From Procambarus clarkii (lineage: Eukaryota > Arthropoda > Malacostraca > Decapoda > Cambaridae), in NCBI RefSeq assembly GCF_040958095.1, contig NC_091228.1:6631200-6695199 (forward strand): a stretch of DNA of 64,000 nt, written 5' to 3'. Made by a program: the position numbers and the translations under genes. Below, in pieces: positions 531 to 57,095 of the stretch. Under the pieces are notes generated by a model. That model saw only the letters and a program-made list of their open reading frames with translations, was not told the origin of the DNA and did not search any database. Each line of letters starts with the position of its first letter. The stretch's first letter is position 1.

Positions 531-743
531 AGACGAGGAGTCACAATAACGTGGCTGAAGTATGTTGACCAAACCACACACTAGAAAGTGAGACCAACCA
601 CACACTAGAAAGTGAAGGGACGACGACGACGTTTCGGTCTGTCCTGGACCATTCTCAAGTCGATTGTGTGTCGTCACAATCTATTTGAGAATGGTCCAGG
701 ACGGCCCGAAACGTCTTCGTCCCTTTCTAGTGTGTGATTTGGT
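531..743 (-). mobile_element. Hairpin element copy 1
   Basis: Long inverted repeat around GACGACGTTTCGGTCCGTCC / its complement, with a hinge near 660-690. Flanked by exact direct repeats CAACCCATGTAC at 519-530 and 744-755. The left arm carries the extra tail GAGGAGTCACAATAACGTGG; the right arm stops at the equivalent of GTTGACCAGACC. Part of the left arm is locally duplicated (CACACACTAGAAAGTGA twice). A SINE-A lies immediately to the right. Confidence 0.88.
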
Positions 744-760
744 CAACCCATGTACCCTGG

Positions 761-1003
761 GGAGCCAGTCAGCCGAGCGGACAGCACGCGGGACTTGTGA
801 TCCTGGGTTCGATCCCAGGCGCCGGCGAGAAACAATGGGCAGAGTTTCTTTCACCCTATGCCCCTATTACCTAGCAGTAAAATACGTACCTGGGTGTTAG
901 CCAGCTGTCACGGGCTGCTTCCTGGGGGTGGAGGCCTGGTCGAGGACCGGGCCGCGGGGACACTAAAGCCCCGAAATCATCTCAAGATAACCTCAAGATA
1001 ACC
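761..1003 (+). mobile_element. SINE-A copy 1 (tRNA-derived)
   Basis: Head with tRNA-like A box (CAGCCGAGCGGACAGCAC) and B box (GGGTTCGATCCCAGG), a conserved body (CTAGCAGTAAAATACGTACC, GGTGGAGGCCTGGTCGAGGA) and a tail of AAGATAACCTC units. Abuts hairpin copy 1 and a minisatellite. Confidence 0.9.
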
Positions 1004-1007
1004 CACT

Positions 1008-1257
1008 CCTTCCTCTCTCCCAGGACAATCCACGCATCCTCTCCCGTCTCCCAGGACAGCCCACTCCTTCCTCTCTCCCAGGACAATCCACGCATCCTCT
1101 CCCGTCTCCCAGGACAGCCCACTCCTTCCTCTCTCCCAGGACAATCCACGCATCCTCTCCCGTCTCCCAGGACAGCCCATTCCTTCCTCTCTCCCAGGAC
1201 AATCCACGCATCCTCTCCCGTCTCCCAGGACAGCCCATTCCTTCCTATCTCCCAGGA
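1008..1257. repeat. 58-bp minisatellite in XDH intron
   Basis: About 4.3 units, each two related halves (CTCCCAGGACAATCCACGCA / CTCCCAGGACAGCCCACTCC). It ends about 50 bp from the exon 14 donor. Confidence 0.92.
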
Positions 1258-1305
1258 CCATCCCCGCTCCCACCTCTACCATCACCCAAGACGACTAACA
1301 CTCAC

Positions 1306-4300: not shown

Positions 4301-7300
4301 CACTCACTATCCTAGGAGCATCATTCATGGTGCAAGCGAGGAGTCACAATAACGTGGCTAAAGTATGATGACCAGACCACACACTAGAAGGTGAAGGGAC
4401 GACGACGTTTCGGTCCGTCCTGGACCATTCTCAAGTCGACCATTCTCACAATCGACTGGAGAATGGTCCAGGACGGACCGAAACGTTTTCGTCCCTTCAC
4501 ATTCTAGTGTGTGGTCTGGTCATCATTCATGATGGCTCTCCCTTACTGACCTGGGAGGACGTGGACTTGGGTACGAAGTGTGTTCTCCAAGGCGGTCAGG
4601 GTGACAGAGGCTCCAAAGACTACGCCAGTCTCCGTGACCGTGACTGAAGTGAGCTCCTCCACGCAGGTGGGACTGATGATCACCGGGTACTCCTGGTTCT
4701 TGAACTTCACCTCCACACCTGGAGCAGGTTCAAGGTTACGTCAGATACTATTTCATCTCACTCTATAGCACAGACAAATGTCACTACGTTTAGGCCAAGC
4801 TTAATGTTTGAGTAAGTACCGTGTGACCCGTGTTCTATTACATTTTTACCAACATCTGCCTTTGTGTAGATGCCCTGGACTATATGAAGGGTCATTGTGT
4901 GTCAAGAGATGCTTGGAAAACTCTCAATCTAGCTCCATTGTTAGTCATTACATTGTGATGAGTAGCCAGCACTAAAGTGACCACTGGGTGCGTTATGTGG
5001 ATATTCTCCAGAACATGAGAGTGAATAAAGCAACTGCAAAACACCAGGTACCTCATTCCCAGCAGGTGTGTGTGTGTGTGTTTTATGTATGAATGCTGCT
5101 TGTGCCCGATAAAAGAATTTACTATTATACCAGAGCCTCCACTCACCAGCTTCAGTGTTGCCGACGATAATCTTGGCGTTGGGGTACAGCGTCTTGAGCC
5201 GGAGGAGCTGAGGGAGGGACACTGGTCTGTAGAAGACGACTCTTTCTCCTCTTATCTCCAAGTACTGCTTGTCAAGATCACCTCGCACCTGTTGTAAGAA
5301 GGAAAACCGATTCCTGAGAATTTGCTATGACGACTTCGTTGTCGATACAGTTATACCACACGGTCGATACAGCTATACCACACACATGACAGTTGATCAC
5401 TTTAATCTACATAAACTGCAAATTAAATTGTGTTTCATGCCATAAGAAAAGAATCTTAGATCACCACCCAATACCTCTTTCTCTCTCATATTATAGCAGC
5501 AGCTTCTACTAGTTATCGCTTCACTTACAACAGAGTTATTAGGCAGATATATTACGCGAGTGATACACGTGTCTGTAGTGTTAAGTGGGGTCATAAGTAG
5601 ACATGTCACGTCACTGGGGTGTTCTGGTCACAGGGGACTCTGTAGGGGGGGGGGGACATACCGGGGCCACCCCGACACATAAGTGGCACTCGCAACATTC
5701 ACCAGTCAACATGCGGGTCACTTTCAGCACCTCAAGGGTTCACATAGCGTCACCTTCAGCTCCGGAGGGAAGATGATCTCCTGGCTGGGGTCGAGGGGCC
5801 GGAACTGTCTAGTGTCGTAGAGCAAGGCAGGTGCTTCCGTTTCTCCGTTTTCCGTTGCAGCTTCAAAAACAAAGTTTTTTTTTTACCCAAAAATAATTGC
5901 GAGATATGTTACTAATAAATAAATATCGAGACAATGTGTATGCTAATGTATATTGTCTTATTAAAACAGGGTTTTGTTTTTAAGATTCAGGGGGGTAGAA
6001 ATAGCCTAAGCTACTCTATCCCTTTGAGATGTATTTATTGCTTATCTCAATAAACATACTTGAACTTGAAGATTAAAATCACATTTGTCATTCACCAGTA
6101 AAGGTATGAGCACCCACCTTGGATGCTGCAGTCTGTACCTCGGAGCTTGCAGCAGCCAGCTATGCCACCCCCAGCAGCATCAGAGGTCAGGTCACGGAGC
6201 TTGCAACAGCCGGCTATGCCACCCCCAGCAGCATCAGAGGTCAGGTCACGGAGCTTGCAACAGCCGGCTATGCCACACCCAGCAGCATCATCAGAGGTCA
6301 GGTCACGGAGCTTGCAACAGCCGGCTATGCCACACCCAGCAGCAGCAGCAGCAGCATCAGAGGTCAGGTCACGGAAGCCCTCGAGAATGGGACGGTATCC
6401 AGTACACCGACACAGGTTCCCTGATGGTGTACATCGGGTTTACTTACACACCTGACTTACTGCACACCAAGATACGTTGATGCGTTACTCTGAAGCTACT
6501 AAATGAATGACAGGAAGAACTTAGTCACAACTCTCAAAGTAGTTAAAGAATCTAAGAGGAATTATAATGCCAAGCTTCTATATGTATCATTTAGCTAACT
6601 CTTTGCTTAAGAGAATCTTGTGTTCTTAGTTTGGTTATATGAGCAAGGTACGTGAGAAAACACTGAAGCCGTTCAGTGGAATCGAACCCTCGTCTGTGAA
6701 CTGGTCAGAATGCTGAAGATAAGGGTCAACTCACCTGTGAAGTACTCGTTGAGATCGGCCATAGAGGGTTTAGGAGTGTTTCTGAGGAGTGTGTACATGG
6801 ACATGACTATACCGGGCGTGCAGAAGCCGCACTGGGAGCCGTGCGCACGTGCTATGCGCTCCTGCACGGCGTGGAGGCCAGTGGTGGAGGAGCCGATGCC
6901 CTCGACGGTGGTGACGGCCAGGCCGTGCGTTGAAACCACGGGAGTCAGGCAGGCGTTGACTGAGTAGTGGCTGCATGGTGAGGAGAGAGACAGCTTAGTC
7001 ACATCTATCTATCTCTCTCTCTCTCTCTCTCACACACACAAAATTGTGGAAATTGAGTGACAAAATGAGCCATAGAGACGTTAGAATTTTTTTTTCAGTG
7101 TCAGAGTAGTAGACAAATGGAATGCATTAGGAAGTGATGTGGTGGAGGCTGACTCCATACACAGCTTCAAGTGTAGATATGATAGAGCCCAATAGGCTCA
7201 GGAACCTGTACACCAGTTGATTGACGGTTGAGAGGCGGGACCAAAGAGCCAAAACTCAACCCCCGCAAACACAACTAGGCGAGTACTTGTTATAATCTAT

Positions 7301-10300
7301 TCCTTCGTTAAAACTAATTTCATAATAATCTATTTGAAAACAGAACAATTAACATATACTTGTGTGAGTCACTGATCAACACAAGTTCATCTGCTGAAGC
7401 CTCAAGATATTTAGATTCTTTACCAAATTTCAATAATAACCAAATTATATCAGGAATTATATCACATGTTTACCAGTAATTACGATCTAATTACCAAATT
7501 ATCAGTTATAATAGGTCTTCTAAATTTAATAGTTATAACTTATCTTATGTTATGATTGCACTATACATGCAATGAAATATGAAGAACAGATGACGCGAAG
7601 TGTATGATTTGAGGTACAAAATGATTGATGCCAACAGGAGCAAAACGCTGATAGAGCAGGACCCGTGCTGCAACACGGCTCACAGAGACCGGGTCAGACC
7701 GGGTCACTTGCAGCAAGAGCAGGACCCGTGCTGCAACAAGGCTCACAGAGACCGGGTCAGGTCAGGTCACAGGTACTTACATGACCTTGTCGTTGCTGCG
7801 GTCGTATCGGGAGATCATGACGGTACAAGCGCCGCAGCCGCCCTCGCCGCACCCAAGCTTCGTGCCGCATAGCCGCACTCTCCCTGCGTCAAGGAATATA
7901 CACACACAAATATGCCTAAGAGAAACGCTCAAATTTTCAACCCGAGTCAGCAGAGTCGGCATTCGATCCCCGATGGTACAAGCGATTGAGCATCGTTCCT
8001 TTACCTCATATTCCAGTTCCATATCCTCACATCCTCCCTCCACACAAGTTCTATGACATGACGACAATCTTCCTGTCGACGAGCACAGGAGACCAGCGGC
8101 TTGTCGAAGGTCCCCACCCCCCCCATTTGCCTTTATGAACTATATATATCAATACGATGGATTTTTTAAATTTATTTTCTACCCTATATCCATCCTATGG
8201 GTGGCAGTGGGCCCGGTATACCCATCCTATGGGTGGCAGTGGGCCCGGTATACCCATCCTATGGGTGGCAGTGGGCCCGGTATACCCATCCTATTGGTGG
8301 GAGTGGGCCCGGTATACCCAACATATGGGTGGCAGTAGGCCCATACCCATCCCGATAGAAGGAACCGAGCTCCAAAATTTATTTAGGTAAGTAACAATCT
8401 TTATAAGTTAGCTACACAGTTGAATATAACTATATACCAATAGTCTTTAATAGCACAATTGGTGCAAGAAACTTGTCCACAACAGTCTCTAAGCTGAATA
8501 ATTTATAGCTGTATGAAGGCTGATAATTTCTTAAAATATAGAAACGAGACGACTATTGCTTCGAATTCTGGGAATGTTTTCAGTTAGCCCTTCCTCTTAA
8601 ATTATAGTACATACACAAGACTATTTAGTCGTACGAACAAAAATTCATTGTTATACCTCAAACGTTCACGTTTTCTGTGGTTGAATTAGCCCGAAATGTA
8701 GCTTAAGAAAATGGAAATTAAAGCAAAGTACCTAATCTAACCTGTCCAACAAATCCTAGGCCTAATAATCTATCTTAGGCCTAATAGAGTACATATATTG
8801 GTTACACTAGACATAGGAATGTTAAAGTTTGGTATATTTGTTCGTACTCTCTGCAAACTAACAGCATCAAACTAAATCACTGTTGGCTGCAACAGTCCAT
8901 TCTTGTACGTCTGACTAAATAGTTTCATTAAATACCATCACTGAGGACGAGTTGCCCGGGGCTGAGGTATATCAAGAAGCGGCCAGCCAGGACTGGTGAG
9001 GAGGCTGTGGTGTAACCAGATCTTTCCCCCAACCGGTTGATCAACGACATCCTATATATCCATGTCTGGCCACTCCTGGTTGTAGAATCTTCTTCCCAAG
9101 GTAACCATGGCTATATTTTACAGTTTCACTTATTCTTCATTTCACTGTAACAAAGGATACGTTTGTTGCGAAGGTAACTGAGAAGCGTCCACTCAGGGTC
9201 CACGCTGGAGTCCTCCACCTGAAATGTACAAGAATTGTTATTCCTCATTGAAGGGGCCAGTTAGTAGTAGCAGTAATGGAGTATATATGCAGGTATACTT
9301 GAGGGTATACCTCAAGTATACCTGCATGGTGAGGGTGAGGGCCATCAGGGATGTAATGAGGACCTAAACAGTGGTAACCATGCAGATATATCCTCCCCCC
9401 ACAACCCCTTATAGTATAGTTATCTCCCCCTCAAGCATACATCCTCTTGCACCCCATTAGTGATGAAGCCTGCCAAGAGGACATTGTATATCTTTTACAA
9501 AACATGCATTTTTTTTGGGTGGTATATGTTTTGTACCAATGTTAACGGTACATGTTTAGCCACTGTGTGTCACATCTTTAATGGTACATTATGCATTGTT
9601 TTACCAATAAAAAACATATATATTGCTTTTCAAGTTATTTCAATTAATGTCAACAAATATAAGTTTGATTTACACTGAAGAACTGTTCAGTCCAGTTACA
9701 CTTGTGAAAAATAAGGTTAGTAGGTGACGCATTATGTATTCGATTTCCAGCCAAAATTTGAATCAGAATTATATACTCTTTTAGTGATTATAATGAAATT
9801 TTTTTTTAATTATAACTCCAGTACAGGCAGGAAGTCTAATACACGATGCGCCATCTATTAACGGAGTTCCGAATTAGCAGGTGATGCTCACCGTGTGTGT
9901 TCTACAACGGTTGGGCACCCTTCCTTTCACCTGATGCCTCTTTTCACCAAGTAAATAAATAGGTACCTGGGAGTTGGGCAACTATTGTGGGGGTTACATC
10001 TTAGGGAGGGTCAGTAGTTGACCTTAGGTGGGTAAAAAGAAGGGGAAACCTCAGTAAACCCAAGTAGAGGTTCCCCATCCTCCCTTCCCCCCCCAAAACT
10101 CACCCCCTCCCCATCCACACATTCTACCCCTTCTCTATATGACCAGGTTCTTCAATTACATCAATTGTGATCCATCCTGCACACTGACGGCCCTCGCCGC
10201 CGCCGCTCAGTTTGTTGAGTTGGTCATGGTACCCATGACAGCCGTCAACACAAACTTCTGGAGCATTATTCCGACTTTTCGAAGTGTTATCCAAATCATA

Positions 10301-19075: not shown

Positions 19076-19119
19076 TGGAATTTTGAATTCCAGGATTATT
19101 TAATTAGCTAAGATTTACC

Positions 19120-20946: not shown

Positions 20947-21205
20947 CCTACATGGGTGAAGCCTTTATCAACCCGGCCTCAGATCAAGTCCATTCCATCC
21001 AGCGGTCGACCCTAAAGATGTATTCATCAATGTTAACATGTTATTCATTCAAAATAGTGATCTTCTCAAATATAAATTAATATTATAATATAGCAGCATA
21101 TATAGGCATATTTAGGGACAATTTTGTTGTTACTCGTCTGCGTTTCTCTCACTCCAGTGAGAGAATATTTTTCTCTCACTACAGTGAGAGAGAAGTATTC
21201 ATAAG

Positions 21206-21380
21206 CAGGCGATGAGTCACAATAACGTGGCTGAAGTATGTTGACCAGACCACACACTAGAAATTGAAGGAACGACGACGTTTCGGTCCGTCCTGGACCA
21301 TTCTCAAGTCGATTGGGAATGGTCCAGGACGGACCGAAACGTCGTCGTTCCTTCAATTTCTAGTGTGTGGTCTGGTCAAC
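21206..21380 (-). mobile_element. Hairpin element copy 3
   Basis: Arms are identical over about 64 bp, including the private variant AAATTGAAGGAACG on both sides. Flanks AAGTATTCATAAG (21193-21205) and AAGTGTTCATAAG (21381-21393) match at 12 of 13. The left arm has the extra tail (CAGGCGATGAGTCACAATAA). Confidence 0.92.
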
Positions 21381-22009
21381 AAGTGTTCATAAGCCTGAGA
21401 GACAAGAGCAGTGACACAGAAGTCTGTTTAAGGCTTGTCTAATCACACATTGTTGCTGCTTAAGATAAGATTACGTGATGACCTGGTGATCGTGCCTCAC
21501 AAGTATTCAAAAAGGGAGCCAACAGCAGCTGAGAACTATGCTGAGAGAGAAGTGGTAGATGACTATACCAAAGGATTAATTGATTGATTAAGATTAAGCC
21601 ACCCAAAAGGTGGCACGGGCATGAATAGCCCGTAAATGGTGGCCCTTTGGAGCCATTACCAGTATCAAGAGCTGATACTGGAGATCTGTGGAGGTGCGAC
21701 TGCACCCTACGAAGATTGTTGTTGTTGTTGTTAAGAGATTCAGCTACTCGGAACAAGTTCCAAGTAGCACGGGCTATGGTGAGCCCGTAACTTACCTGGC
21801 ACAGGAGCGGGGCAAGTAGCATGGGCTATGGTGAGCCCGTAGTGGACTTACCTGGCACAGGAGCGGTGTTGTCCCCTACGGAGAGGTCCTGACCTCTGAT
21901 GTACCAGAGGAGTGATTGATTGATGAAGATTAAACCACCCAAGAGGTGGCACGGGCATGAATAACCCGTAATCTAGAGGACTGTTGCTGTTGTTGTTTTA
22001 TATTCAGCT

Positions 22010-22130: not shown

Positions 22131-22261
22131 AATTAACTACATTTAGATTCAGCTACTTGGAACAAAACGTTCCAAGCAGCACGGGCTATGGAGAGCCCGT
22201 TGTGGACTTACCTTTCACAGAAGATGTGCTGTAAGAGAGGGCCTGAAGACGTGAGAGTACA

Positions 22262-22850: not shown

Positions 22851-22854
22851 TGTT

Positions 22855-23460
22855 GGCCCCACAGGACTAGCAACACTGCAAGCTACACATGACAGGACCG
22901 AACGCGTCGAAACTTTTATAATGCCGAAAAAATTTGCAGGGGTATGGCAGGCGAGGAGTCACAATAACGTGGCTAAAGTATGTTGCCCAGACCACACACT
23001 AGAAGGGTGAAGGGACGACGACGTTTCGGTCCGTCCTGGACCATTCTCAAGTCGATTGTGTATAGATTGCAGGGGTATTGATGTAGAAAACTTCGTTAAC
23101 CATGTGATGATTTTGGGGCTCAATGTCCCCTCGGCCCGGTCCCCGACCTCCTACTGAGGGGGGGAGGGGGTTAAAAGGTCAGATGTAAAACAAATAGCGA
23201 TCAATGGTTCCCAGCTCGACAAGCCACAATGTAGGAGAGAAAACGGATTTTTGTTTACCCTTTGGGTTATAAGGTCGTGGAACCGCCTACCCGTCGAAGG
23301 TGTAAATGCCAATACACTGATAAATTTCTAGATCCAGCCCGTTAAAACCACCAGAACAAACAAGGGGTGACCTTTAACAAGCCGTTGACTTCATATCTTT
23401 GTCGTGGCCACTAGAAAGAGAGATCGAGTAGCCCTTAGATAAATTTCTAATCTAGTGGAA
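22855..23460 (+). mobile_element. LINE-E 3' fragment interrupted by hairpin half copy and SINE piece
   Basis: ACAGGACTAGCAACACTGCA at the start and TAAACCTTTGG-like region (GTCGTGGAACCGCCTACCCG) plus AACAAGCCGTTGACTTC at the end match other LINE-E copies. Broken by insertions at 22946-23066 and about 23100-23160. Confidence 0.75.
22946..23066 (-). mobile_element. Hairpin element copy 4, half copy
   Basis: Only the long arm is present, ending at the hinge CTCAAGTCGATTGTG. It interrupts a LINE-E fragment and is flanked by exact TTGCAGGGGTAT at 22934-22945 and 23067-23078. Uninterrupted LINE-E relatives (near 28470 and 47350) have this segment once, so a target duplication is supported by paralogous empty sites. 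Confidence 0.9.
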
Positions 23461-34745: not shown

Positions 34746-34809
34746 ATTGTCTGCAAATCCAACTTTTAATCATGATAAACACATCAGCATATCCTTGTTT
34801 GAGTAAATG

Positions 34810-46800: not shown

Positions 46801-49800
46801 CCCACACGAATGTTTAAAGCAGGTGAACAGAACGAATTAAGGGGTATTCCCATAAGATGCGATATAATCAAACCGAGCATAACATGTTATGGCATGTTAT
46901 GGGGGCATAACAGCGTACATCACAACTACTAAATCAACAACCTTACCTTGCAGCAGATTAATAAAGAAAATTACCTTAGATTTAGCATCCACCAGTCCCA
47001 TTGAAAGTTGCACAAGGAAATATGAGGTGCGGTGAAAAATGAACCAAACCCTAGGAAGAGTTAAATGAACCTTCGACTTTAAGGAAAAAGCAGTTATTTA
47101 TTCAACTGTATAAATCTCTGCTGCACCACTGGATCCAAGTACGGATCCAGTGGCAAATTTGGACCACTGGATCCAAGCAGGGAGACCTCACCCTCAGCAG
47201 TATACCTGCTTTGAGACATTCAACACCAGGTGATAAAAATGACCCCAGAACTAAGTCAGCTCTCATACTAGGGATGGTTGAGGACTACGGGACTAACAAC
47301 ACTGCAAACCAGACATGATAAGGCTGACTAGCACATCGAAACTTTTAAAATACCGAACAATTTGGAGGATGTTGATCAAGACAACTTCATAAGGTCAGTT
47401 GTAAAACAAACAAGAAACAAACAGTTTCAAGCTCAACAAACTACAATGCAGGACAGAAAACAGGAGAGGTTTCATCACCCTTAGGATTATAAACCCATGG
47501 AACCACCTACCTGCCAAAGCCATAAAGTCCCCCCCCACCCTGAAAAAAAAGTTCAAAATCAAACTGGATAAAATTAGGAAAACAACATGGGAGAGACCTG
47601 AAAAGTCGCCGGCTTCCTGTCCCTTATCGAGGCCTCTAGAGAGATAGTGACCCTCAGATAAATTCAGCTAATGTTTGTTTTCCAATTGATGCCTAGTTAA
47701 GCAGATTATATAGTCTACTTCGAAAGAAATTTGCTAGAATTGGTTCATTTTAATCATAAAATATAACCATGTAAATGGCTTCCCGTTCCTCTGATGACTA
47801 CTTTAAACTGATATTATTGTAACACATAGGGAGCCGGTCGGCCGAGCGGACAGCACTCTGGACTTGTGATCCTGTGGTCCTGGGTTCGATCCCAGGCACC
47901 GGCGAGAAACAATGGGCAATGTTTCTTTCACCCTATGCCCCTGTTACCTAGCAGTAAAATAGGTACCTGGGTGTTAGTCAGCTGTCACGGGCTGCTTCCT
48001 GGGAGTGGAGGCCTGGTCGAGGACCGGGCCGCGGGGACACTAAAAAGCCCCGAAATCATCTCAAGATTTTTACCTCAAGATAGGTCACCATATGCAGGCG
48101 AGGAGTCACAACAACGTGGCTAAAGTATGTTGATCAGACCACACACTAGAAGGTGAAGGGACCACGACGTTCCGGTCCGTCCTGGATCATTCTCAAGTCG
48201 ATTGAGAATGGTCCAGGACGGACCGAAACGTCGTCGTCCCTTCACCTTCTAGTGTGTGCTCTGGTCAACCTAGGTCACTTTTATGAAGTTTCCACAGTTG
48301 GCAGCTCTGAACTGATCTTGACATGTTTCTTACTTTTCTACATTTGTGCCAGTTTTAGTGCATTACTAAAGCGGAACAATTCAGCATCCCGCAACTTGGC
48401 ATACATGAATCTAATTAATAAAATGATTTTGAAGTCGCTTGGAGAAGGGTTTAAGACCTGGAGCCAGATTCACGAAAGCACTTACGAACCTGTACGTCTT
48501 TTCTCAATCTTTGGCGGCTTTGTTTCCACTTATTAAACAGTTAATGAGCTCCGAAGCACCAGGAGGCTGTTTATAACAATAACAACAGTTGATTGGCAAG
48601 TTTTCATGCTTGTAAACTGTTTAATAAATGTAACCAAAGCCCTCAAAGATCGAGGAAAGATATACACGTTCGTAAGTGTTTGCGTAAGTGCTTTCGTGAA
48701 TCTGGCCCCTGATCAGAGCATACGTACCTGCCCTCCAAAGTTATCGATACCCTATAAACAGCCCCAAATCGATTTAATGTCACCCAACGAAAATAAAATT
48801 AGATTTTTCATTTGTTTTCCCTATGAGGTGACAGTGACGTCACATGTTAATTCTGATACAGGTTTTAGATCCTACTGTGAGGCTGACCTGCCATAGATGC
48901 GATGGGAGGTGAAGAGCGGCGTCTCCTGCTGGACGTTATAGCAGAGAGTTATCTGCTTGAAGAAGCGTCTCTTGATATCCCATCCGATGATCCACTCGGT
49001 GCCTCTCTGCCCACACGTCTTGCCCATTCTAATGGAGGACTGCGGCTTCTTGAGACAGCTGAGATCACTCCACTTGATCGGCTGAGGAAGTAAGTGGAGA
49101 CATCTGAACGAGCACTGATACCCCGAGAGAACTACAAAATGAAAGCTGAGATAGAATAACGTAGTAACGAGTAAAGGACAAAGATGAGGATGGATATCCG
49201 TGGCGGTGTGGAAGCCCAGTACCACCACGGTAGCCTCACATCATCACTATAACACGCGAACAGAAATACACCGCATCAGGCTACGGTACCGAAATGTAAA
49301 CATTGTGGAAAAAATAACCGACAAACAACTCAGACATCCACCACATTGCAGATTTGCGCCTCAAATAAGATCACCCCTGAGATTTAATAGTGTAGAAAGT
49401 TTTTAAACACACTGGACAAAACCTTGTTGAAGTTGACGTTTGAGCCCTAAACATTCATCCACCTCACGAGATTAAAACAAATTAAGTAGCACTTACTGGG
49501 TCAGCTTAAGACCCGGTCAAGAATATCCATGCAAAATAAGCATTACGGAGTCCCCCACACACTTCACAGCCAAAGACAATTCACAAAACAGTTCACCAAA
49601 TATTGAGGGTACAGACACGACAGCCAAGCATACAGAACTTACTGTATCAACATGCATGAGGCCAGCATCAGTGCATGTGATGCGACTGTAGTGCATCCTG
49701 TCGGGCCTGGTGGGCCTGACCCTTCCGAAGACCAGGAGGTGATTGTCTTGGCCGGGACAGGAGACCATGACTGAAGAGCCGTGTGGGAGATGCACCACAC

Positions 49801-52800
49801 GGCTCTTCAGCACCGGCACCCTCAACTCCTCTTCCATCACAGGGTACACGAAGTGGTCCATGTCTTTCCTCGATAGGAACGGTCGGATGTGTTCAGGGGG
49901 GACGTCATCGTACTTAAACTTACAGTCACCTATAGAAAATTATTATATATACACATATAAAGAGATTGAAAACCCCCCCACAAAGTTCAGTTCGTTTATT
50001 ATACATCCCAGACCCAACTGAACCCAAAAATTAGTTTATTTTATTTTTATTTTATTTATATATATACAAGAAGGTACATTGGGTTTGTGAGAATACATTG
50101 GATAGTACAGTATTTACATTCTTGTAAAGCCACTAGTACGCGCAGCGTTTCGGACAGGTCCTTAATCTAGCAGATAATTTTAAGTAGGTAATTTCAATCA
50201 GAATTGATAAATGATAAAGATACATTGCAAGAGAAAAATAAGATGAGAGAGCTATATCACCGATATGCTGTTTGCACAGTTTGATAATAATACAGCAATA
50301 ATCTATTCACAGTTTATCAAACACTGTGACCCCTAATCAAGAGGGTCCCCTAGCCAGAGTGTTGTGATCACAGACTGCTGTGGTCACAATATTTTGGTGT
50401 AGTGATGATCCCCAGCAACACAGAGGAGGGAGGTAAACTTGTGGTATACCGTCATTAGGTCGCAAAATGTTTATTGGAAAACATGTAAAAGCGTTATTTA
50501 ACTTCCAATCGGTGCATTACCAATGCTCGCTAAATTATTATTATTTATAGCTTTTAGTTGGTGTTAATTGGCTGTCTAATAAAAACATCATCTGACAGAG
50601 GTTCTCAACCAGTGTCTCGAGATCTAGAATAACCAAATTTAAACAAACTTCACAAATAGTTCATAGTCTATAAACTTTACCATACAGTAAGGCTGGCTAA
50701 TATTACGGAACGGCACAGACACGGGGAACAATTGACTCAATGACCACTTAATTACCAATTAGAGACCGTCAAGGCAATTAGTGTCCTCACAGCCAGTCTT
50801 CAATCCAGGCTGAGGACCTCTTCAGTTGTCACAACATCACAAAAATGATGTGCTAAACTACCCTAACATACCCTAACTCGAGATCACACACTAGAAGGTG
50901 AAGGGGACGACGACGTTTCGGTCCGTCCTGGACCATGGACAATCGACTTGAGAATGGTCCAGGACGGACCGAAACGTCGTCGTCCCTTCACCTTCTAGTG
51001 TGTGATCTGGTCAACATACTTTAACCACGTTATTGTGACTCATCCCCTTCATACCCTAACTCCTTATAACTGAAGCAAAACATCTTCCCGAATAATTAAA
51101 CATCATTTTGACGCTAAAATCCCCAACGGATAAAATATAATGTACTATAAATTATATAGTGGCTCGCAAAAGCTCTTTTTCCCCAATGCGTGGGGTCTTA
51201 GGAGAATTTTTAGTACATCATATTTGTGATGTTATGACAAGTGGAGATGACGGGAGGAGTAGTGAAGGGTGACACAGGCGGCCCAACTTCTCTCTGTGTG
51301 TGTGGGTGTGGAGTGTGGCGTCACCAGTACAAACGAACTCTCACATGTATTAATGTCACAGTGATGTTCTTACAGCTTCGCCGCCCTCCTAGTGTGGCCT
51401 CGCCCCCACCCTCCTCCTAGCGTGGCCTCGCCCCCCCTCCTCCTAGCGTGGCCTCGCCCCCCCTCCTCCTAGCGTGGCCTCGCCGCCCCCCCCCCTCCTC
51501 CTAGCGTGGCCTCGCCCCCACCCTCCTCCTAGCGTGGTCTCGCCGCCCCCTCCTCCTAGCGTGGTCTCGCCGCCCCCCCCCCCTCCTCCTAGCGTGGCCT
51601 CGCCCCCACCCTCCTCCTAGCGAGGCCTCGCCGCCCCCCCTCCTCCCAACGAGGACTCGTCGCCATTATCAACATTCGTGTAAATAAATATCGAATCCAA
51701 GAGTAAATCCTATTGCGTAGTTTGCAACCAGTTGGACCCCGAGTTGGATCCCGGGCAGGGCGAGATGCGCGGACACGTTTTCCTATACCTGATGCCTCTG
51801 TTCACCTAGCAGAAAACAGATAACCAGATGTCAAGGTAGATGCTATGGGCGGCATCCTTAAGGAGGCAGCTGGCCTTAAATTAGCTCGATAGGTCTATCA
51901 GGATTCCTGATAGACCTATGGGAAATGTACTCTTAATTGTGATTTGATATTCGAAATTTACAATGACATTTGTATAGCACGTTATACTATATACCATTTG
52001 CACAGTTTGATAATACATCAATAATCTATTCACAGATGTCACATATCTACTTATTTATAAGCATAATAGTGACTATAAGCAATAAGTCATATATGTGCTG
52101 TTTTTCTTGGGGAGCCGGTGGGCCGAGCGGACAGCACGCTGGACTTGTGATCCTGTGGTCCCGGGTTCGATCCCGGGCGCCGGCGAGAAACAATGGGCAG
52201 AGTTTCTTTCACCCTATGCCCCCTGTTACCTAGCAGTAAAATAGGTACCTGGGTGTCAGTCAGCTGTTACGGGCTGCTTCCTGGAGGTGGAGGCCTGGTC
52301 GAGGACCGGGACGCGGGGACACTAAAGCCCCGAAATCATCTCAAGATAACCTCATGATAACAGTTGATTTAACAATCGGTACGTTACTAATGCTCGCTAG
52401 ATTTTTGTTAATTGGTGGTATTGGTGTTAATTCCGTCTTGGGCGGAATTAGGGATCGCTCAAGGAAAGTAATTACCCTTTGAAACATTAAACTCTTCACT
52501 CGCGGTTAAGAACCTCTGTCAGATTAGATAAACAATTAACCCCAACTGAAGAAAAATGATAATCTAGCAAGCATTGGTAAAAGCCTTGTGGACTCGCCTG
52601 GACTATCGGGCCCCCAAGTATTGGGCGTCTGCACAAGTCAGAGGGCCCACCATACCCACCGGGCTGTGGTGGATATGTGGGCCTGCGGGCCGCTCCAAGC
52701 AACAGCCTGGTGGACCAAACTCTCACAAGTCAAGCCTGGCCTCGGGCCGGGCTTGGGCAGTAGAAGAACTCCCAGAACCCCATCAACCAGGTATCAACCA

Positions 52801-54936
52801 GGTAAAGATTGCTACACTTGAAGCCGTCAATGACATCATGAAGGCTAGAGAGCGGGGGTGTCCAGCATAAAGAGAACCTCAGTTGTGCAGCCCTGACAAC
52901 AGTCACAAGCGCCCAGATGGGGTCACCCTGCAGCCATGGAGGGATGGGAAACAGGTTATGTGGGACCACACGGGTCCGGCTACATTGGCTGATACCTATC
53001 TACCTTACAGTACAGCTGAGGGAGGCGGGGCAAACCACCTCCAGGGAGACCCAGAAAACTAATCAAGTACAGGGACCTAGAACATCGTTACAGATCTTAG
53101 TCAATACTTTCCGAGAGCCGGGTACCGTTAGTAAATGTGCACTTAATGTTCCGGAAGGAGGTGGGTGAGGTATTTACGTGTACACGAGACGAATAACCAG
53201 TTATCTTAGAGATGATTTTTTTGCTGTAGGTGAAGCCGCTACGTACTCTCTCTGCCGCAGGAATTGTGGCAAGTTCCACCTCCCAACTTCTACCCGCGCC
53301 TCTCATTATTTATATTAATCAACAATTTTTCCATGATAATTTGTTAAATTGTTATTAAACAAACGAATAATTAGTAGACGAATAAAGATAATTTACCAAT
53401 AAACGTGTACAAATTACGAATCTTTTAGTCTAGTAAAGTCTGGGGCCCCGAAATCATCTCAAGATAACCTCAAGATAGTATGTTGACCAGACCACACACT
53501 AGAATTTGAAGGGACGACGACGTTTCGGTCCGTCCTGGACCATTCTCAAGTCGATCCTCAAGATAGTATTTTTAGCTTTAAAAACAAAACTATGAAAAGT
53601 ATGAACTAATAACATACAGCTTCTCTAAATTACAATATCTCTCTACACAAGTCCTTATAGGTATGTCTTTTTAATATCTGTGATCGTGATATGTATATAT
53701 ATATATCTTCTTGAGGTTATCTTGAGATGATTTCGGGGCTTTTAGTGTCCCCGCGGCCCGGTCCTCGACCAGGCCTCCACCCCCAGGAAGCAGCCCGTGA
53801 CAGCTGACTAACACCCAGGTACCTATTTTACTGCTAGGTAACAGGGGCATAGGGTGAAACAAACTGCCCATTGTTTCTCGCCGGCGCCCGGGATCGAACC
53901 TGGGACCCTAGGATCACGTGTCCAGCGTGCTGTCCGCTCGGCCGACTGCCTCCCTACCTATTATGTGTAAGCTTAATTGCTCTTTAGTTAGCCGTTTAGT
54001 TAGAAATATATTGAATCCGGTTCTAATTGTATGTTTTATGATACCTGTAATTTATAGACTTATCAAATGATTAATTTCATGTTAATAGCAACTGTAACCA
54101 CCTTGGGGGTAGTAAAGCAATTAGCTCAAAGCCGAATGGTCTCTGGTTAGATTCTCGGGCAAGACGAGACGTTTGGCCACGATTCCTTATACCTGATGCA
54201 TCTGTCCACTTTAGGAGTAACTGCGTACCTGGGAGTTAATCAATTGTTACAAGCATCATCCCGGTTAAAAGCAGTTCTTTTTTATTAATTTCTACCACAG
54301 ACGTGGCCACACATTTACAATACTAACCAGCATATATACATTTTCTTCTGTCCTCCATGGACAGGGTTAGAGATGTATTAAACATGTTGACCAGACCACA
54401 CACTAGAAGTTGAAGGGACGACGACGTTTCGGTCCGTCCTGGACCATTCTCAAGTCGATTTGAGAATGGTCCAGGACGGACCGAAACGTCGTCGTCCCTT
54501 CAACTTCTAGTGTGTGGTCTGGTCAACACACTTCAGCCACGTTATTGTGACTCATCGCCTGTATTAAACATATAGCTCAAGGGTTTATTGAACAATCAAC
54601 CACAGGTGATTCGGTGCTTTTAAAATGCTAAGCTAACCTACATACGTAAATACATAGATACACAGATTTACGTACGCCCTACATAAAAAGTGTAGTTGGC
54701 ATAGGAAACCCTCAAAGCTCCTCATCTCAAACACGAAACCATTCGTCATTTGGTTAAACTTAAACACTTTCTTAATGCCTAAGACATTGAGAGACTTGTA
54801 CGAGTTATTCTATGCCCGTGCCGCCTCTTGGCTGACTCAATCTCTATCAATCAATCTGGAGAAACTTACTGATATAAGCCTGAGCGGCGCACAAGGTCCA
54901 TAGAGAGGCCCACACCACCCCCACGGAGCCCAGCAT
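34810..54936 (-). CDS. Secreted DNA/RNA non-specific endonuclease (duplex-specific nuclease type), complete
   Basis: Extracellular nuclease of the beta-beta-alpha-metal family (DNA/RNA non-specific endonuclease), probably digestive: the crab duplex-specific nuclease is a hepatopancreas enzyme. Exons 54936-54870, 49929-49643, 49081-48888, 43215-42933, 41088-40927 and 35058-34810 join in phase to 413 aa; Kamchatka crab DSN has about 407. A signal peptide (MLGSVGVVWASLWTLCAAQA) fills exon 1. An N-terminal cysteine-containing domain occupies exons 2-3. The catalytic domain shows FLAKGHLAPDGDF (237-249) with general base H242, then QWQAINNGNWK (267-277) with the Mg-binding Asn. The C-terminal exon has paired cysteines (FCCSVHEL) and ends PSLGPVGLLY, matching the family end. 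The exon 5 donor could be 3 nt further on without changing frame. All key residues are present, so the gene looks active. Its introns hold most of the mobile elements at 35-54.9 kb. Confidence 0.95.
36226..40600 (+). pseudogene. Helitron helicase remnant (interrupted)
   Basis: Recognisable helicase blocks occur in order but in shifting frames: LYSEVPTYYTW near 36270; TSFQQLRFVNGVTHATSRIA at 36460-36519; LWTKYKLHMAEDI before 36705; an open stretch MDFTAEIYNEALIMIEDLCL at 36733-36792; a Walker A-like APGRIGKTFLI near 37020; then, after the LINE, FPNIQ, VNYPTEFSNLFDLPG, LLRNINQPKLCNAT, GQSLEMC and GQLYVACSRVGKPDNIY. Several stops and frame changes are present, and no Rep domain precedes it. It cannot encode a working transposase. 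Confidence 0.9.
37667..39902 (+). mobile_element. 5'-truncated LINE (CR1/Jockey group) nested in the Helitron
   Basis: A long open frame (37798-39105) encodes reverse transcriptase: ARVTPVHKGG, NNYRPISNLPILSKIFEK, FGFRSQKSTNDAI, LFVDLRKAFDTVNHDYLL, GVPQGSILGPLLFLIYIND and FADDTTFIYSN near 38520-38550, then thumb motifs. Style resembles the Daphne/Crack/Rex1-like lineages; the exact clade is uncertain. A frame change near 37.9 kb and loss of the endonuclease show truncation. The 3' UTR has a 130-bp direct duplication (39366 and 39495) and ends with a tail (GGACCTGTCCGAAACGCTGC...) plus A/T-rich (AAATA)n. AAAGC at 37662-37666 and 39903-39907 is a likely short target duplication: removing the LINE restores the Helitron reading GAAAAGCATTTCCC. 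Confidence 0.92.
40667..40830. mobile_element. Inverted dimer of a tRNA-derived SINE
   Basis: Arms of about 80 bp, nearly perfect, with a 5-nt loop (40746-40750). The right arm reads AAGGCGTCCTGTAGTTACCA, GGAGTATGGGTTCGAGTC (B box) and CTGGGGTGTGAGTTTTCAG. It lies about 45 bp beyond the Helitron 3' end in nuclease intron 5. Confidence 0.85.
41150..41335 (-). mobile_element. LINE tail fragment in nuclease intron 4
   Basis: ACAAGAAGGTACAATGGGTT, AAACCACAAGCGCACAAAGC and GTGCAGGTCCTTAAGC are the complement of the shared tail. Confidence 0.75.
41650..41772. repeat. 24-bp minisatellite in nuclease intron 4
   Basis: Five units of GGCCAAGGCACTTTTCTATG plus TATA, nearly identical, suggesting recent expansion. 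Confidence 0.93.
42285..42650. mobile_element. Two SINE-F copies in inverted orientation
   Basis: Plus-strand copy 42523-42650: GTCGTAGCTCAGTCAATAAA (A box), GTAGGTTCGAATCCTCG (B box), CACGGCCCTTGTGGATTTGT and GCATCACGCTATTGTGATTT. A minus-strand copy of the latter part lies at 42285-42365. The two face each other across 160 bp in nuclease intron 4 and could pair in RNA. Confidence 0.85.
42675..42870 (-). mobile_element. SINE-B copy with tRNA-like head
   Basis: On the minus strand it shows GTAGCATAGTGGTCAGTGCA (A box) and GGTCCCGGGTTCGATTCCCA (B box), then the SINE-B body. This is the best copy for the head. Nuclease intron 4. Confidence 0.75.
43325..43460 (+). mobile_element. LINE-E terminal fragment
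   Basis: GAAAATCCAGCTGAAATAAT, GACAAGCCGCCGGTTTTATG and CACTAGAGTGATGGCGGCC. Nuclease intron 3. Confidence 0.72.
43495..43561 (-). repeat. Dispersed 65-bp repeat, copy 2
   Basis: Complement of 27998-28066 with two or three differences; nuclease intron 3. Class unknown. Confidence 0.85.
43560..43860 (+). mobile_element. Possible LTR plus leader fossil
   Basis: About 270 bp with a TATA-like CATATAAG, a downstream transcribed-looking segment, a stretch of TA repeats and an end near GTTACA, followed after some 35 bp by ATTGGTGGCATGATCCAGTG, which resembles the leader after an LTR in arthropod LTR elements. No internal coding part is attached; the I-like LINE follows. Family (Gypsy or BEL) cannot be fixed. 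A fragment only, and old. Confidence 0.3.
43860..45566 (+). mobile_element. I-like LINE, 3' half with open RNase H frame
   Basis: Located in nuclease intron 3. The frame 43920-45248 (442 aa) is open. It starts in the RT-RNase H connection and carries a complete RNase H domain: YTDGS, TELFALILAL, SDSLSSLNAL and RADKLAKES give the D-E-D-D catalytic set; the ribonuclease ends with WSPSHVGL. A C-terminal CKLCxxxxxHxxxHYVMEC knuckle follows. This layout is typical of I-clade and related LINEs. The 3' UTR ends CTACCGCCCACAAGATGGG then TATGGGGTGCATAATAAATG and an A-rich run. The 5' part is missing, but no internal stop is seen, suggesting a fairly young insertion. Confidence 0.88.
45755..46020 (-). 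mobile_element. LINE-G 3' end, second copy
   Basis: Complement of the 11765-12030 element: CAGAAGGCCTATTGGCCCAT, TTGAAACAATCGGGGGACCC and CACAAATCAACAACCCTG. Nuclease intron 3. Confidence 0.78.
46965..47670 (+). mobile_element. LINE-E 3' part
   Basis: Diverged thumb region, GGTTGAGGACTACGGGACTA, GAACAATTTGGAGGATGTTG and ATGGAACCACCTACCTGCC, ending CGAGGCCTCTAGAGAGATAG. Decayed. Nuclease intron 3. Confidence 0.78.
47829..48080 (+). mobile_element. SINE-A copy 5
   Basis: Full copy, intact boxes. Its tail runs directly into hairpin copy 5. Nuclease intron 3. Confidence 0.9.
48091..48270 (-). mobile_element. Hairpin element copy 5
   Basis: Directly follows a SINE-A tail. TAGGTCAC occurs on both sides (48081-48088 and 48271-48278), with weaker similarity beyond (CCATATG versus TTTTATG). 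The left arm has the extra tail, the right arm ends GCTCTGGTCAACC. Confidence 0.85.
48459..48708. mobile_element. MITE-H copy 1
   Basis: About 250 bp, inverted over most of its length. Ends GCCAGATTCACGAAAGCACT and its complement. CCTG flanks both sides. Internal TGATTGGCAAGTTTTCATGC and the GTTTAATAA arms match copy 2 in reverse. Nuclease intron 3. Confidence 0.82.
50030..50260 (-). mobile_element. 5'-truncated copy of the nested LINE
   Basis: Complement of LINE positions about 39670-39902: matching segments include TACAAGAAGGTACATTGGGT, AGCGTTTCGGACAGGTCC, TCTAGCAGATAATTTTAAGT and GATACATTGCAAGAGAAAAA. The match extends upstream of the tail, so this is a true short LINE copy rather than a SINE. 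Confidence 0.88.
50880..51049 (+). mobile_element. Hairpin element copy 6
   Basis: Lies in nuclease intron 1. Exact 13-bp flanks CATACCCTAACTC at 50867-50879 and 51050-51062. Here the right arm has the extra tail (CACGTTATTGTGACTCATCC) and the left arm is short. Both arms carry the private variant AGATCACACAC where other copies have GACCACACAC. Confidence 0.92.
51372..51655. repeat. C-rich minisatellite in nuclease intron 1
   Basis: About nine units of CCTCCTCCTAGCGTGGCCTC followed by a variable GCC/CCC run. Confidence 0.92.
51725..51870 (+). mobile_element. SINE-B copy
   Basis: GTTGGATCCCGGGCAGGGCG, TACCTGATGCCTCTGTTCAC and CTATGGGCGGCATCCTTAAG match the family; diverged. Confidence 0.6.
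51889..51919. repeat. Perfect 31-bp palindrome
   Basis: ATAGGTCTATCAGGA, one central T, then the exact complement. Nuclease intron 1. Confidence 0.85.
52110..52362 (+). mobile_element. SINE-A copy 6
   Basis: Full copy with intact boxes and AAGATAACCTC tail. Nuclease intron 1. Confidence 0.9.
52570..52810 (+). repeat. Dispersed repeat of unknown class
   Basis: A GC-rich block including AGTAGAAGAACTCCCAGAAC and CCCATCAACCAGGTATCAAC that looks like the end of a retroposon. No second copy in this window, so class is a guess. Nuclease intron 1. Confidence 0.4.
53482..53555 (+). mobile_element. Hairpin element copy 7, half copy inside a SINE tail
   Basis: One short arm ending at the hinge CTCAAGTCGAT. 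It has landed in the tail of a SINE-A fragment (53436-53481) and is flanked by exact CCTCAAGATAGTAT at 53468-53481 and 53556-53569. It lacks the extra arm tail seen in complete copies. Confidence 0.85.
53708..53957 (-). mobile_element. SINE-A copy 7
   Basis: Full copy on the minus strand in nuclease intron 1. A separate tail-only SINE-A fragment lies at 53436-53481 on the plus strand. Confidence 0.88.
54105..54275 (+). mobile_element. SINE-B copy
   Basis: Starts near TAGCTCAAAGCCGAATGGTC with GGTTAGATTCTCGGG, then ACCTGATGCATCTGTCCAC and CTGGGAGTTAATCAATTG. Nuclease intron 1. Confidence 0.6.
54386..54559 (+). mobile_element. Hairpin element copy 8
   Basis: Exact 12-bp flanks TGTATTAAACAT at 54374-54385 and 54560-54571. 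Arms are identical over about 67 bp with the private variant AGAAGTTGAAGGG on both. The right arm has the extra tail and ends GTGACTCATCGCC. Confidence 0.93.
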
Positions 54937-55469
54937 CTTCAGGGCCGCTGTAGTGGGGAAAATGTTGAAGGTAGTGAGGATATAATGACGACCTGAGATG
55001 CTCAAGCAACGGTGTGGTAACCCCGAGAGACGTCTCGCGCTCAAGTGATACTGGGAGATTTATCTCCAACTGACAAATATATTTTCGCGATGTGGCGTTG
55101 TCGCAAAAAAATAATGAGTCAGCGACGCGATAAAGAGTTGACGGGAAAAGCGTCGCAAAGTAGGAATGATTACGCGAAATGATAATTTGGCGTCGGTATG
55201 TAACCCGCCAAACACACACCGAAACTACGACGTTGGTACAACGTTCGAACAAGTTTTTAACACTTCCTAACCAGTTACAGCAAGTTGTAACAACGTTCTA
55301 ATACGTCATAAACACGTTAAGCCAAGATGTAACAACTTTTTTACAAGTTGTAACAAGCGGAAAATAGAGACAGTTTCGGGTTGTGTTACCAGGATGTAAC
55401 GGGAGTAACGTCTTTAAGTGCCGGCCTAGAAGTGGTTACCAGGCAGTGAGGCTCTTTAAATCCCGCCAA

Positions 55470-55930
55470 GGCCCGTGACGCTGTAACAAGGCCCGTGACG
55501 CCGGAGTGACGCTGTAACAAGGCCCGTGACGCAGTAGGGCCGCTGTAACAAGGCCCGTGACGCCCTAACAAGGCCCGTGACGCAATAGGGCCGCTGTAAC
55601 AAGGCCCGTGACGCAGTAGGGCCGCTGTAACAAGGCCCGTGACGCCGTAACAAGGCCCGTGATGCCGGAAGGACGCTGTAACAAGGCCCGTGACGCCGGA
55701 GTGACGCTGTAACAAGGCCCGTGACGCAGGGGGGGGACGCTACAACAAGGCCCGTGACGCTGTAACAAGGCCCGTGACGCCGGAGTGACGCTGTAACAAG
55801 GCCCGTGACGCAGGAGTGACGCTGTAACACGGCCCGTGACGCAGGAGTGACGCTGTAACAAGGCCCGTGACGCCGGAGTGACGCTGTAACAAGGCCCGTG
55901 ACGCAGGAGTGACGCTGTAACACGGGAGGC
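55470..55930. repeat. 31-bp minisatellite upstream of the nuclease gene
   Basis: About 16 units of ACAAGGCCCGTGACGCCGGA plus GTGACGCTGTA, with shorter variants. Starts about 535 bp upstream of the nuclease start codon. Confidence 0.92.
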
Positions 55931-56049
55931 TGCACCAACTCCCACTGCGTGACGGTGAACAGCAGTGCCCAGAGGGGTAAGAGAGCTGCCGTGTTTTCAC
56001 TGCCCCAAACCTACGCATCGCTGCCAGACGAAAGCTCTTTCTGTGTGTA

Positions 56050-56595
56050 CTCACTTAGTTGTGCTTGCAGGGGTTGAGCTCTGGCTCTTTGGTCCCACCT
56101 CTCAACAGGTGTACAGGTTCCTGAGCCTACTGGCCTCTATCATATCTACATTTGAAACTGTGCATGGAGTCAGCCTCCACCACATCACTGCCTAGTGCAT
56201 TCCATTTGTCAACTACTGACACTGAAAAACAATTATAATGTATCTGTGGCTCATTTGGGTACTAAGTTTCCACCTGTGTTCCCTTGTTCGTGTTCTCATG
56301 TTCCGCCCGTGCTAAATAATTTGTCTTTGTCCACTGTCAGTTCCTCTGAAAATTTTGTACGTGGTGATCATGTCTCCCCTAACTCATTTTGTCTTGGACG
56401 CGAGGGCTAATTTCCGTAGCATTTCCTCTTAGCTCATATCACTCGGCTCTTGGACTAGTCTGGTGGCATACCTCTGAATCTTCTCTAACTTTGTCTTGTG
56501 TTTAACTAGGTATGGATTCCAGGCTGGAACTGCATACTCCAGGATTGGTCTGTCGTAAGTGGTATACAAGATTACGAATGATTCCTTACACACGT
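56050..56595 (-). mobile_element. LINE-F 3' part
   Basis: On the minus strand encodes [20 protein letters not shown] and FKCRYDRGQ; further upstream are remnants of the LINE C-terminal domain. A terminal fragment of the same family is at 25285-25345 (minus). Confidence 0.78.
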
Positions 56596-56786
56596 TTCGA
56601 AAGCAGTTCTTATGTTGAATACGAGTGTATGCGAGTGGGTCGTAGGGCGCCTTAAGTATATTTCATCCACATGTCCTGTCCTCATCCCCGTGTTCTCTAG
56701 TAGCTCCTCTTGTACGCTCTCGTCCCCAACGGACACATTACAAAGTTCTATGAAAAGTAGCGACTCACAGATATCCACGTTTTCTA

Positions 56787-57095
56787 TGCTGACCAGACCA
56801 CACACTAGAAGGTGAAAGGACGACGACTTTTGATTGATTGTTGCCGCCGAAGGCGGCTAGTTTATTGTGCGCCCCATACTCATCCTGTGAGCGGTAGCGC
56901 AAAAGCATTACAGAGGGCACAAAAGGTCTTTATCAGACCTCATCTTAGATTATTACATAAACAATTTCTTCAATCTTTCGACGACGTTTCGGTCCGTCCT
57001 GGACCATTCTCAAGTCGATTGTGACTTGAGAATGGTCCAGGACGGACCGAAACGTCGTCGTCCCTTCACCTTCTAGTGTGTGGTCTGCTTCAACA
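56787..57095 (+). mobile_element. Hairpin element copy 9, interrupted by another repeat
   Basis: The left arm is split by a 156-bp insertion (56828-56983), and CGACGAC appears on both sides of it, a 7-bp target duplication. The rest of the hairpin continues 56984-57095. Outer flanks share only TCTATG. Neither arm has the extra tail. Confidence 0.82.
56828..56983 (-). mobile_element. Short element sharing the I-like LINE tail
   Basis: Read on the minus strand it has CGCTCACAGGATGAGTATGG, GGCGCACAATAAACTAGCC and ends at a GATT repeat. The block matches the 3' end of the I-like LINE (GGGTATGGGGTGCATAATAA). It interrupts hairpin copy 9 with a 7-bp duplication. Probably a truncated LINE or a SINE using that LINE's machinery. 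Confidence 0.65.

What the first reader, a model, noticed from the sequence alone, without database searches (positions are those of the whole stretch)
531..57095. Hairpin element that inserts with 12-14 bp duplications: a candidate retroposed hairpin
Seen: nine copies of a long inverted repeat. Five have exact 12-14 bp direct flanks (519/744, 22934/23067, 50867/51050, 53468/53556, 54374/54560), two have one mismatch (4319/4521, 21193/21381), and one has 8 bp (48081/48271). Known: foldbacks moved by DDE transposases usually leave short fixed-length duplications (2-9 bp), whereas variable duplications over 10 bp are typical of LINE-driven target-primed insertion. Inference: this is a hairpin RNA, or a snap-back cDNA, mobilised by a LINE, and not an ordinary MITE. 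I do not know of a described family with this form.
Basis: partly seen in the sequence, partly recalled or inferred. Interest (0 to 1): 0.8.

Follow-up and report, generated by a model that had tools for sequence, protein, structure and literature searches.

The report
SINE-like retroposon that inserts as hairpin
A short non-coding "copy-and-paste" repeat in this animal-like DNA usually lands as a mirror-image double of itself between copies of its target site, probably because its new DNA strand folds back and copies itself during insertion; it is a striking variant of a known process rather than a new class of element.

Summary
The target duplications are real and far beyond chance. It is not a MITE: about 35 nt at one end, the tail, have no inverted partner. 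Duplications are exact, 11-14 bp, in 6 of 11 copies, weaker in 4, absent in 1. An unrelated tRNA-like SINE (40655-40879) has the same palindrome-plus-tail layout with an exact 15-bp duplication and gives the polarity: tail = RNA 3' end, apex = RNA 5' end. In 8 of 9 inverted copies the extra arm ends at one site before the tail, often overlapping the target. Arms of one copy resemble each other (16 of 5040 re-pairings as close), while apices mostly differ. So the hairpin is most likely made anew at each insertion, by snap-back of first-strand cDNA in target-primed reverse transcription. Twin priming and a hairpin master RNA remain possible. Snap-back is a described R2 junction class (low frequency in one study) and 5' inversion is 1 of 5554 in Alu; here inverted copies are the majority. 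Only 64 kb was available; the partner LINE and host are unknown; Repbase and Dfam were not searched.

The parts
519..755 (-). E1: inverted copy, strand given as RNA sense (tail at low end); duplication CAACCCATGTAC 519-530 and 744-755; one arm carries a 24-bp internal tandem duplication
4319..4531 (-). E2: inverted copy; duplication CATCATTCATG 4319-4329 and 4521-4531, six bases of which overlap the expected continuation of the arm
10277..10732 (+). E3: old, diverged inverted copy with about four tandem 90-bp body units; decayed duplication TTTCGAAGTG/TTTCAAGTG; its arms are only 72% complementary over 58 nt
21193..21394 (-). E4: inverted copy; 14-bp duplication with one mismatch; three minority variants present in both arms
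22934..23078 (-). E5: full-length single unit without inverted arm; duplication TTGCAGGGGTAT
34302..34754 (+). E6: old, diverged inverted copy with about 300 bp between arms; no target duplication found
48081..48278 (-). E7: inverted copy; duplication TAGGTCAC (8 bp exact)
50867..51062 (+). E8: inverted copy with the extra arm shortened to consensus position 43; duplication CATACCCTAACTC
53468..53569 (-). E9: tail-less single unit ending at the same site where the extra arms end; duplication CCTCAAGATAGTAT. The strand (RNA sense) is by analogy
54374..54571 (+). E10: inverted copy; duplication TGTATTAAACAT; arms identical over the 62 compared sites and sharing a minority variant
56747..57108 (-). 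E11: inverted copy with a foreign insertion in one arm (about 56831-56979) and a diverged tail; duplication TCTATGAAA (9 bp)
40655..40879 (+). I1: unrelated tRNA-like SINE as an almost complete palindrome with a one-sided 36-nt 3' tail; duplication CATAATTTATATATG (15 bp, found nowhere else on the + strand of the window); B-box-like GGTTCGAGTCA 10 of 11

Best explanation
It is a short (about 115 nt) non-coding retroposon, SINE-like in behaviour. Proposed course: a LINE-type enzyme nicks the target; the nick primes reverse transcription at the RNA 3' tail (GCCACGTTATTGTGACTCATCGCCTGC end); the first strand runs to the RNA 5' end (about ACACAATCGACTTGAG); its 3' end folds back (for example TTG onto CAA in E4 and E7) and primes a copy of the strand on itself; this copy stops about 35 nt short of the target, just before the 3' tail, and its end is joined to the other cut strand, often over a few matching bases, leaving a target duplication of about 11-15 bp and a palindrome with a one-sided tail. 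Shown by sequence: duplications, one-sided tail, arm end, likeness of the arms within a copy, differing apices, single-unit copies. Inferred: the enzyme, the order of steps, snap-back rather than twin priming, and that the arm stops because the tail is still held by RNA and enzyme.
For: Target duplications. Tail at one end only; arm start at consensus 32-36 in 8 of 9 inverted copies and 43 in the ninth. Arm likeness within copies: summed matched distance 18 against a mean of 26.7 over all 5040 pairings, 16 as low or lower; six cases (E1, E8, E4 three times, E10) where both arms of a copy share a minority base, against one base shared by the same-side arms of two copies (7 of 9 inverted copies used, E3 and E6 left out as too diverged). 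Arm divergence 18/424 is not different from duplication divergence 3/102 (Fisher p 0.78), so arms were about identical at insertion. Apices: E4 and E7 one base apart, E1, E2, E8, E10, E11 each different, with short loops (up to about 17 nt in E8, by eye). Overlap of the arm's expected continuation with the target duplication 4, 6, 1, 0, 0, 5, 2 bases in E1, E2, E4, E7, E8, E9, E10 (read by eye), p about 4e-7 under a geometric null. I1, an unrelated tRNA-like SINE, has the same layout, stops 36 nt before its 3' end and gives the polarity. Snap-back junctions are reported for R2 proteins.
Against: E9 lacks the tail yet has a 14-bp duplication and ends at the site where the extra arms end: it shows priming at, or an RNA ending at, that site, which snap-back does not predict. 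E1's arms differ by several indels (24, about 4 and 3 bases), and E3's arms are not copies of each other. Two one-arm bases recur in other copies (46T in one arm of E1 and both arms of E8; 59T in one arm of E2 and in E9), and 72A is shared by the same-side arms of E1 and E2: these could mean arms from different templates, or hot spots. The E10 variant 60T and E4's 59A and 60T also occur in other copies, so they are minority, not private, bases. E4 and E7 share an apex; E2 and E8 apices need extra steps. No pol III promoter, small-RNA head or partner LINE was found. Only 11 copies from one 64-kb window were examined.
Confidence: 0.52

Rival explanations
1. Twin priming: both cut target strands prime reverse transcription, one at the RNA 3' end and the other at an internal accessible site (consensus 31-36), both cDNAs run to the RNA 5' end, and their 3' ends join head to head.
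For: Fixed internal site with target overlap; E9 looks like a product of priming at that site alone (AGTAT over AUACU, 5 bases); 2 of 3 folds that contain that site (E4 tail, consensus; not E5) put it in a hairpin loop. PMC2912911 (passages read): 5' junction microhomology is more frequent in 5'-inverted L1 than in full-length or 5'-truncated L1.
Against: Nearly the whole body is present twice in the inverted copies, so one RNA must be copied twice or two RNAs used; likeness of arms within a copy then needs the same RNA or the same source locus. The apex lies at the RNA 5' end with a short loop in the 7 younger inverted copies. Alu 5' inversions are 1 of 5554.
Confidence: 0.22
2. Hairpin master RNA: hairpin loci are transcribed and the hairpin RNA (5' end at GTTGACC, 3' end at the tail) is reverse transcribed as such by a LINE.
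For: Nearly constant start of the extra arm in 8 of 9 copies looks like a transcript start; E4 and E7 share an apex; 72A is shared by the same-side arms of E1 and E2.
Against: Apices mostly differ, so hairpins formed repeatedly anyway; only that one arm-specific base is shared between copies; target overlap extends past the supposed RNA end in 4 of 7 copies (p 0.0016); a full-length single unit, E5, exists.
Confidence: 0.15
3. Fold-back DNA transposon (MITE) moved by a transposase.
For: Long inverted repeats in many copies.
Against: The inverted repeat is not terminal: about 35 nt at one end have no partner; duplications vary; a tail-bearing single unit with a duplication exists (E5); arms resemble each other within copies.
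Confidence: 0.03
4. Assembly or amplification artefact that makes inverted chimeras.
For: Inverted chimeras are known artefacts (recalled, from no call).
Against: Artefacts would not lie between target duplications, and one-sided tails and diverged old copies (E3, E6) would not be expected.
Confidence: 0.02

Closest known systems
Snap-back 5' junctions of R2 proteins in human cells (PRINT; PMC11371274, PMC11331408, passages read)
   Same: cDNA 3' end primes synthesis on its own strand before the 5' junction forms, giving an antisense copy next to the upstream target
   Different: There an engineered R2 transgene at the rDNA target, at low frequency in PMC11331408 (frequency not seen in the passages of PMC11371274); here a dispersed natural family in which 9 of 11 copies are inverted, with near-complete arms and target duplications
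5'-inverted L1 / twin priming (PMC2912911, passages read)
   Same: Inverted 5' part, target duplications, microhomology at the 5' junction
   Different: Here the inverted part repeats nearly the whole body; in twin priming as recalled it mostly continues it. 5' inversion is 639 of 2068 L1 (30.9%) but 1 of 5554 Alu insertions there
SINEs in general
   Same: Short, non-coding, dispersed, variable target duplications, 3' tail mostly intact
   Different: No small-RNA head or promoter shown; most copies inverted
Fold-back MITEs
   Same: Long inverted repeat
   Different: Inverted repeat not terminal, longer and variable duplications

Membership tests
SINE | Short dispersed non-coding repeat | tested here: met
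   11 copies, about 115-nt unit
SINE | Variable target duplications of the LINE type | tested here: met
   11-14 bp exact in 6 of 11 copies; 14 bp with a mismatch, 9 bp or 8 bp in 3, decayed in 1, none in 1
SINE | Small-RNA derived head | tested here: not met
   Rfam at E up to 10 gave only miRNA-precursor (palindrome) and chance-level matches in E2 and E5; but the same search also gave no tRNA for the tRNA-like heads of I1 and I5, so the test is weak
SINE | Internal pol III promoter | tested here: inconclusive
   A-box-like 11 of 12, reached by 72 of 500 shuffles; B-box 8 of 11, reached by 361 of 500; consensus boxes recalled
SINE | 3' end shared with a partner LINE | tested here: inconclusive
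   13-base stretch with one mismatch shared with the tail of the tRNA-like SINE I5; 3 of 60 random sequences have such a hit, and the motif was chosen after seeing it. No LINE tail found in the window
MITE / fold-back DNA transposon | Inverted repeats at both termini | tested here: not met
   About 35 nt at one end lack a partner in the inverted copies that keep the family tail
MITE / fold-back DNA transposon | Fixed short target duplication | tested here: not met
   Exact duplications of 8, 9, 11, 12, 13 and 14 bp
Snap-back product of target-primed reverse transcription | Antisense copy starts at the cDNA 3' end with a short loop | tested here: met
   Short apices at the RNA 5' end in E1, E2, E4, E7, E8, E10, E11, 7 of 9 inverted copies; E6 has about 300 bp between its arms and E3's arms are unlike
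Snap-back product of target-primed reverse transcription | Both arms derive from one template | tested here: met
   16 of 5040 pairings as close in 7 of 9 inverted copies; arms and duplications about equally diverged; E1 and E2 less clear, E3 not
Snap-back product of target-primed reverse transcription | Single-strand hairpin intermediate | not testable with these tools
   needs a biochemical assay
Hammerhead-bearing retroposon (Penelope-like, retrozyme) | Hammerhead ribozyme | tested here: not met
   No hammerhead family among Rfam matches up to E 10 in E2 or E5

The most novel reading that the evidence does not exclude
In this host a LINE-type reverse transcriptase routinely primes second-strand synthesis by snap-back of the finished cDNA, at least for two unrelated short RNAs (this family and I1), and the copying stops at a boundary some 35 nt from the target set by the enzyme-held 3' tail, so that hairpin DNA is the normal product rather than an accident.
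Probability: 0.3. Interest if true: 0.75.

Novelty: new variant of a known kind. Interest (0 to 1): 0.55.

Why it matters
How LINEs complete integration after first-strand synthesis is called very poorly understood (abstract of PMC6895275, seen in the listing). A natural family that mostly inserts as snap-back palindromes would record that step in its genomic copies, with the apex, stop point and target overlap all readable. It would also seed the host genome with near-perfect palindromes, possible sources of double-stranded RNA and of fragile sites (inference).

Tried and rejected
Own-genome search: none held. More copies: four exact family patterns and one of the control SINE in viral contigs gave none; one family pattern in genome contigs gave two bacterial contigs with chance 20-21 base matches. 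Family letters in papers: none. Ten paper searches; I saw only the best 12-20 rows of each, of up to 261 papers, and none of those rows looked like a description of this family. Open-licence papers only; Repbase and Dfam not searched.

First idea dropped: that the tail is the RNA 5' end and the constant arm end the RNA 3' end. I1's orientation and the mostly complete tail turned the polarity; E9 is the copy that fits the old view better.

Rejected: miRNA-like Rfam matches of E2, which any long palindrome may score; hammerhead relic; tRNA head. Partner LINE in the window: around the reverse transcriptase frame at 37762-39105 and the RNase H frame at 43881-45248 the only matches to the tail core with up to 3 mismatches are those of I5 at 42304 and 42623. 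Local hairpin of the tail: folds disagree with one another, so no structure is claimed.

Errors corrected: the first chance control for duplications included tandem arrays, redone with masking; I1 ends were misplaced, set right; the control for inverted copies handled minus-strand copies wrongly, redone. The 3/102 duplication divergence counts E7 as 14 bp with two mismatches, leaves out E3, E6 and E11 and is biased low, because duplications are found by their likeness. The overlap test uses 7 of 11 copies; E3, E5, E6 and E11 are left out. The overlap counts were read by eye. The arm test uses 7 of 9 inverted copies.

Full report
Observation. With tandem arrays masked, exact flank matches of 11 bp or more occur in 0.07% and of 12 or more in 0.045% of 20000 random pairs of positions, so the long ones are target-site duplications; 8 bp or more occurs in 1.2%, so E7's is weaker. 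A search of the window with a consensus of the repeat gives 11 copies, E1 to E11, besides three hits of 12-17 bases at E 0.78 that I left out. Eight copies of an ordinary tRNA-like SINE in the same window (for example 52081-52330) hold none by the same test (internal scores 6.0-7.5).

Anatomy. Read from the tail, a full unit is GCAGGCGATGAGTCACAATAACGTGGCTGAAGTATGTTGACCAGACC...CATTCTCAAGTCGATTGTG. In inverted copies the body comes back as an inverted arm, but the first 35 or so positions do not: the arm match begins at consensus position 36, 34, 35, 35, 32, 33, 43, 34 and 35 in E1, E2, E3, E4, E6, E7, E8, E10 and E11. The inverted repeat is therefore not terminal, which is against a MITE. The tail is kept in E1, E2, E3, E4, E5, E7, E8 and E10, diverged but recognisable by eye in E6 and E11, and missing in E9.

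Polarity. An unrelated repeat, I1 (40655-40879), is an almost complete palindrome with a one-sided tail and an exact 15-bp duplication. It carries a B-box-like GGTTCGAGTCA (10 of 11; consensus recalled), which gives its sense strand: the apex is at the RNA 5' end and the tail at the RNA 3' end. By analogy, and because a complete 3' end with a shortened 5' end is the rule for target-primed insertion (recalled), the family's tail is its RNA 3' end. Rfam did not recognise a tRNA in I1, so its tRNA origin rests on the motif.

Where the second arm comes from. In 7 of 9 inverted copies (E3 and E6 left out as too diverged) arms of one copy are closer than arms of different copies: sum 18 against a mean of 26.7 over 5040 pairings, 16 as low or lower. 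Six times both arms of a copy share a minority base; once the same-side arms of two copies do (72A, E1 and E2). Two further one-arm bases recur elsewhere (46T in one arm of E1 and in E8; 59T in one arm of E2 and in E9), and E1's arms differ by indels, so E1 and E2 are less clear than E4, E8 and E10. Arm divergence (18/424) is about that of the duplications (3/102; Fisher p 0.78). Apices differ among E1, E2, E8, E10 and E11, with E4 and E7 one base apart. Together: both arms came mostly from one template, and most hairpins arose separately.

Where it stops. The arm end overlaps the target duplication by 4, 6, 1, 0, 0, 5 and 2 bases in E1, E2, E4, E7, E8, E9 and E10 (read by eye), p about 4e-7, or 3e-5 without E9. 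This resembles the microhomology known at 5' junctions of L1 and R2 (PMC2912911 and PMC2718515, passages read). In I1 the arm likewise stops 36 nt before the 3' end (arm coordinates, duplication ends): the same distance in an unrelated repeat.

Mechanism. Snap-back of first-strand cDNA explains one template, varied short apices, polarity and end joining. It is a reported junction class for R2 proteins (PMC11371274; PMC11331408, low frequency; passages read). Against it stands E9, which lacks the tail and ends where the arms end; this favours priming at an internal site, as in twin priming. A hairpin master RNA would explain the constant arm end but not the differing apices, nor the target overlap that runs past that end in 4 of 7 copies (p 0.0016). 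I put snap-back at 0.52, twin priming at 0.22, a hairpin master at 0.15.

How unusual. In PMC2912911 (passages read) 5' inversions are 639 of 2068 human- and chimpanzee-specific L1 insertions (30.9%) but 1 of 5554 Alu insertions. Here 9 of 11 copies are inverted. No listed row of my ten paper searches looked like a description of this family; PMC10454600 (passages) reports few SINEs in decapods and has no occurrence of hairpin or foldback in its main text. I recall similar sequence from decapod records, but no call shows it, and the host is unknown.

Limits. One window, 11 copies, no further copies in viral or prokaryote collections, no partner LINE, no RNA data.

Noticed in passing
40655-40879: An unrelated tRNA-like SINE forms an 85-nt-arm palindrome (95% complementary, 5-nt loop) with a 15-bp target duplication and a one-sided 3' tail.
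   Followed up: yes
42293-42652: A tRNA-like SINE (B-box 11 of 11) lies beside an inverted partial copy joined to a second sense tail; looks like a 5' inversion, no target duplication found. Its tail shares CACGCTATTGTGA (one mismatch) with the hairpin family.
   Followed up: partly
10341-10690: Inside E3 the body of the repeat is amplified as about four 90-bp tandem units, without the tail: a possible route from retroposon to satellite.
   Followed up: no
48472-48685 and 57336-57563: Two copies of a different fold-back element, arms 81-84% complementary with a 58-nt spacer and ends like GGGGCCAGATTCACGA; probably a true MITE.
   Followed up: no
52081-52330 and 7 other places: tRNA-like SINE of about 220-250 bp, 8 copies, the 7 others 91-96% alike to this one, with a CTCAAGATAAC tail and short or absent duplications (best match 4-9 bp).
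   Followed up: partly
42799-42856: Minus-strand tRNA match in Rfam (RF00005, 41.1 bits) outside the other SINE families' copies; weakly similar to the 52081 SINE.
   Followed up: no
42906-43364: Minus-strand frame with a DNA/RNA non-specific endonuclease domain (Pfam PF01223, E 1.5e-16); no solved relative found by sequence search at E 0.001.
   Followed up: partly
37762-39105 and 43881-45248: Two LINE-like remnants: a reverse transcriptase frame (PF00078) and an RNase H frame (PF00075).
   Followed up: partly
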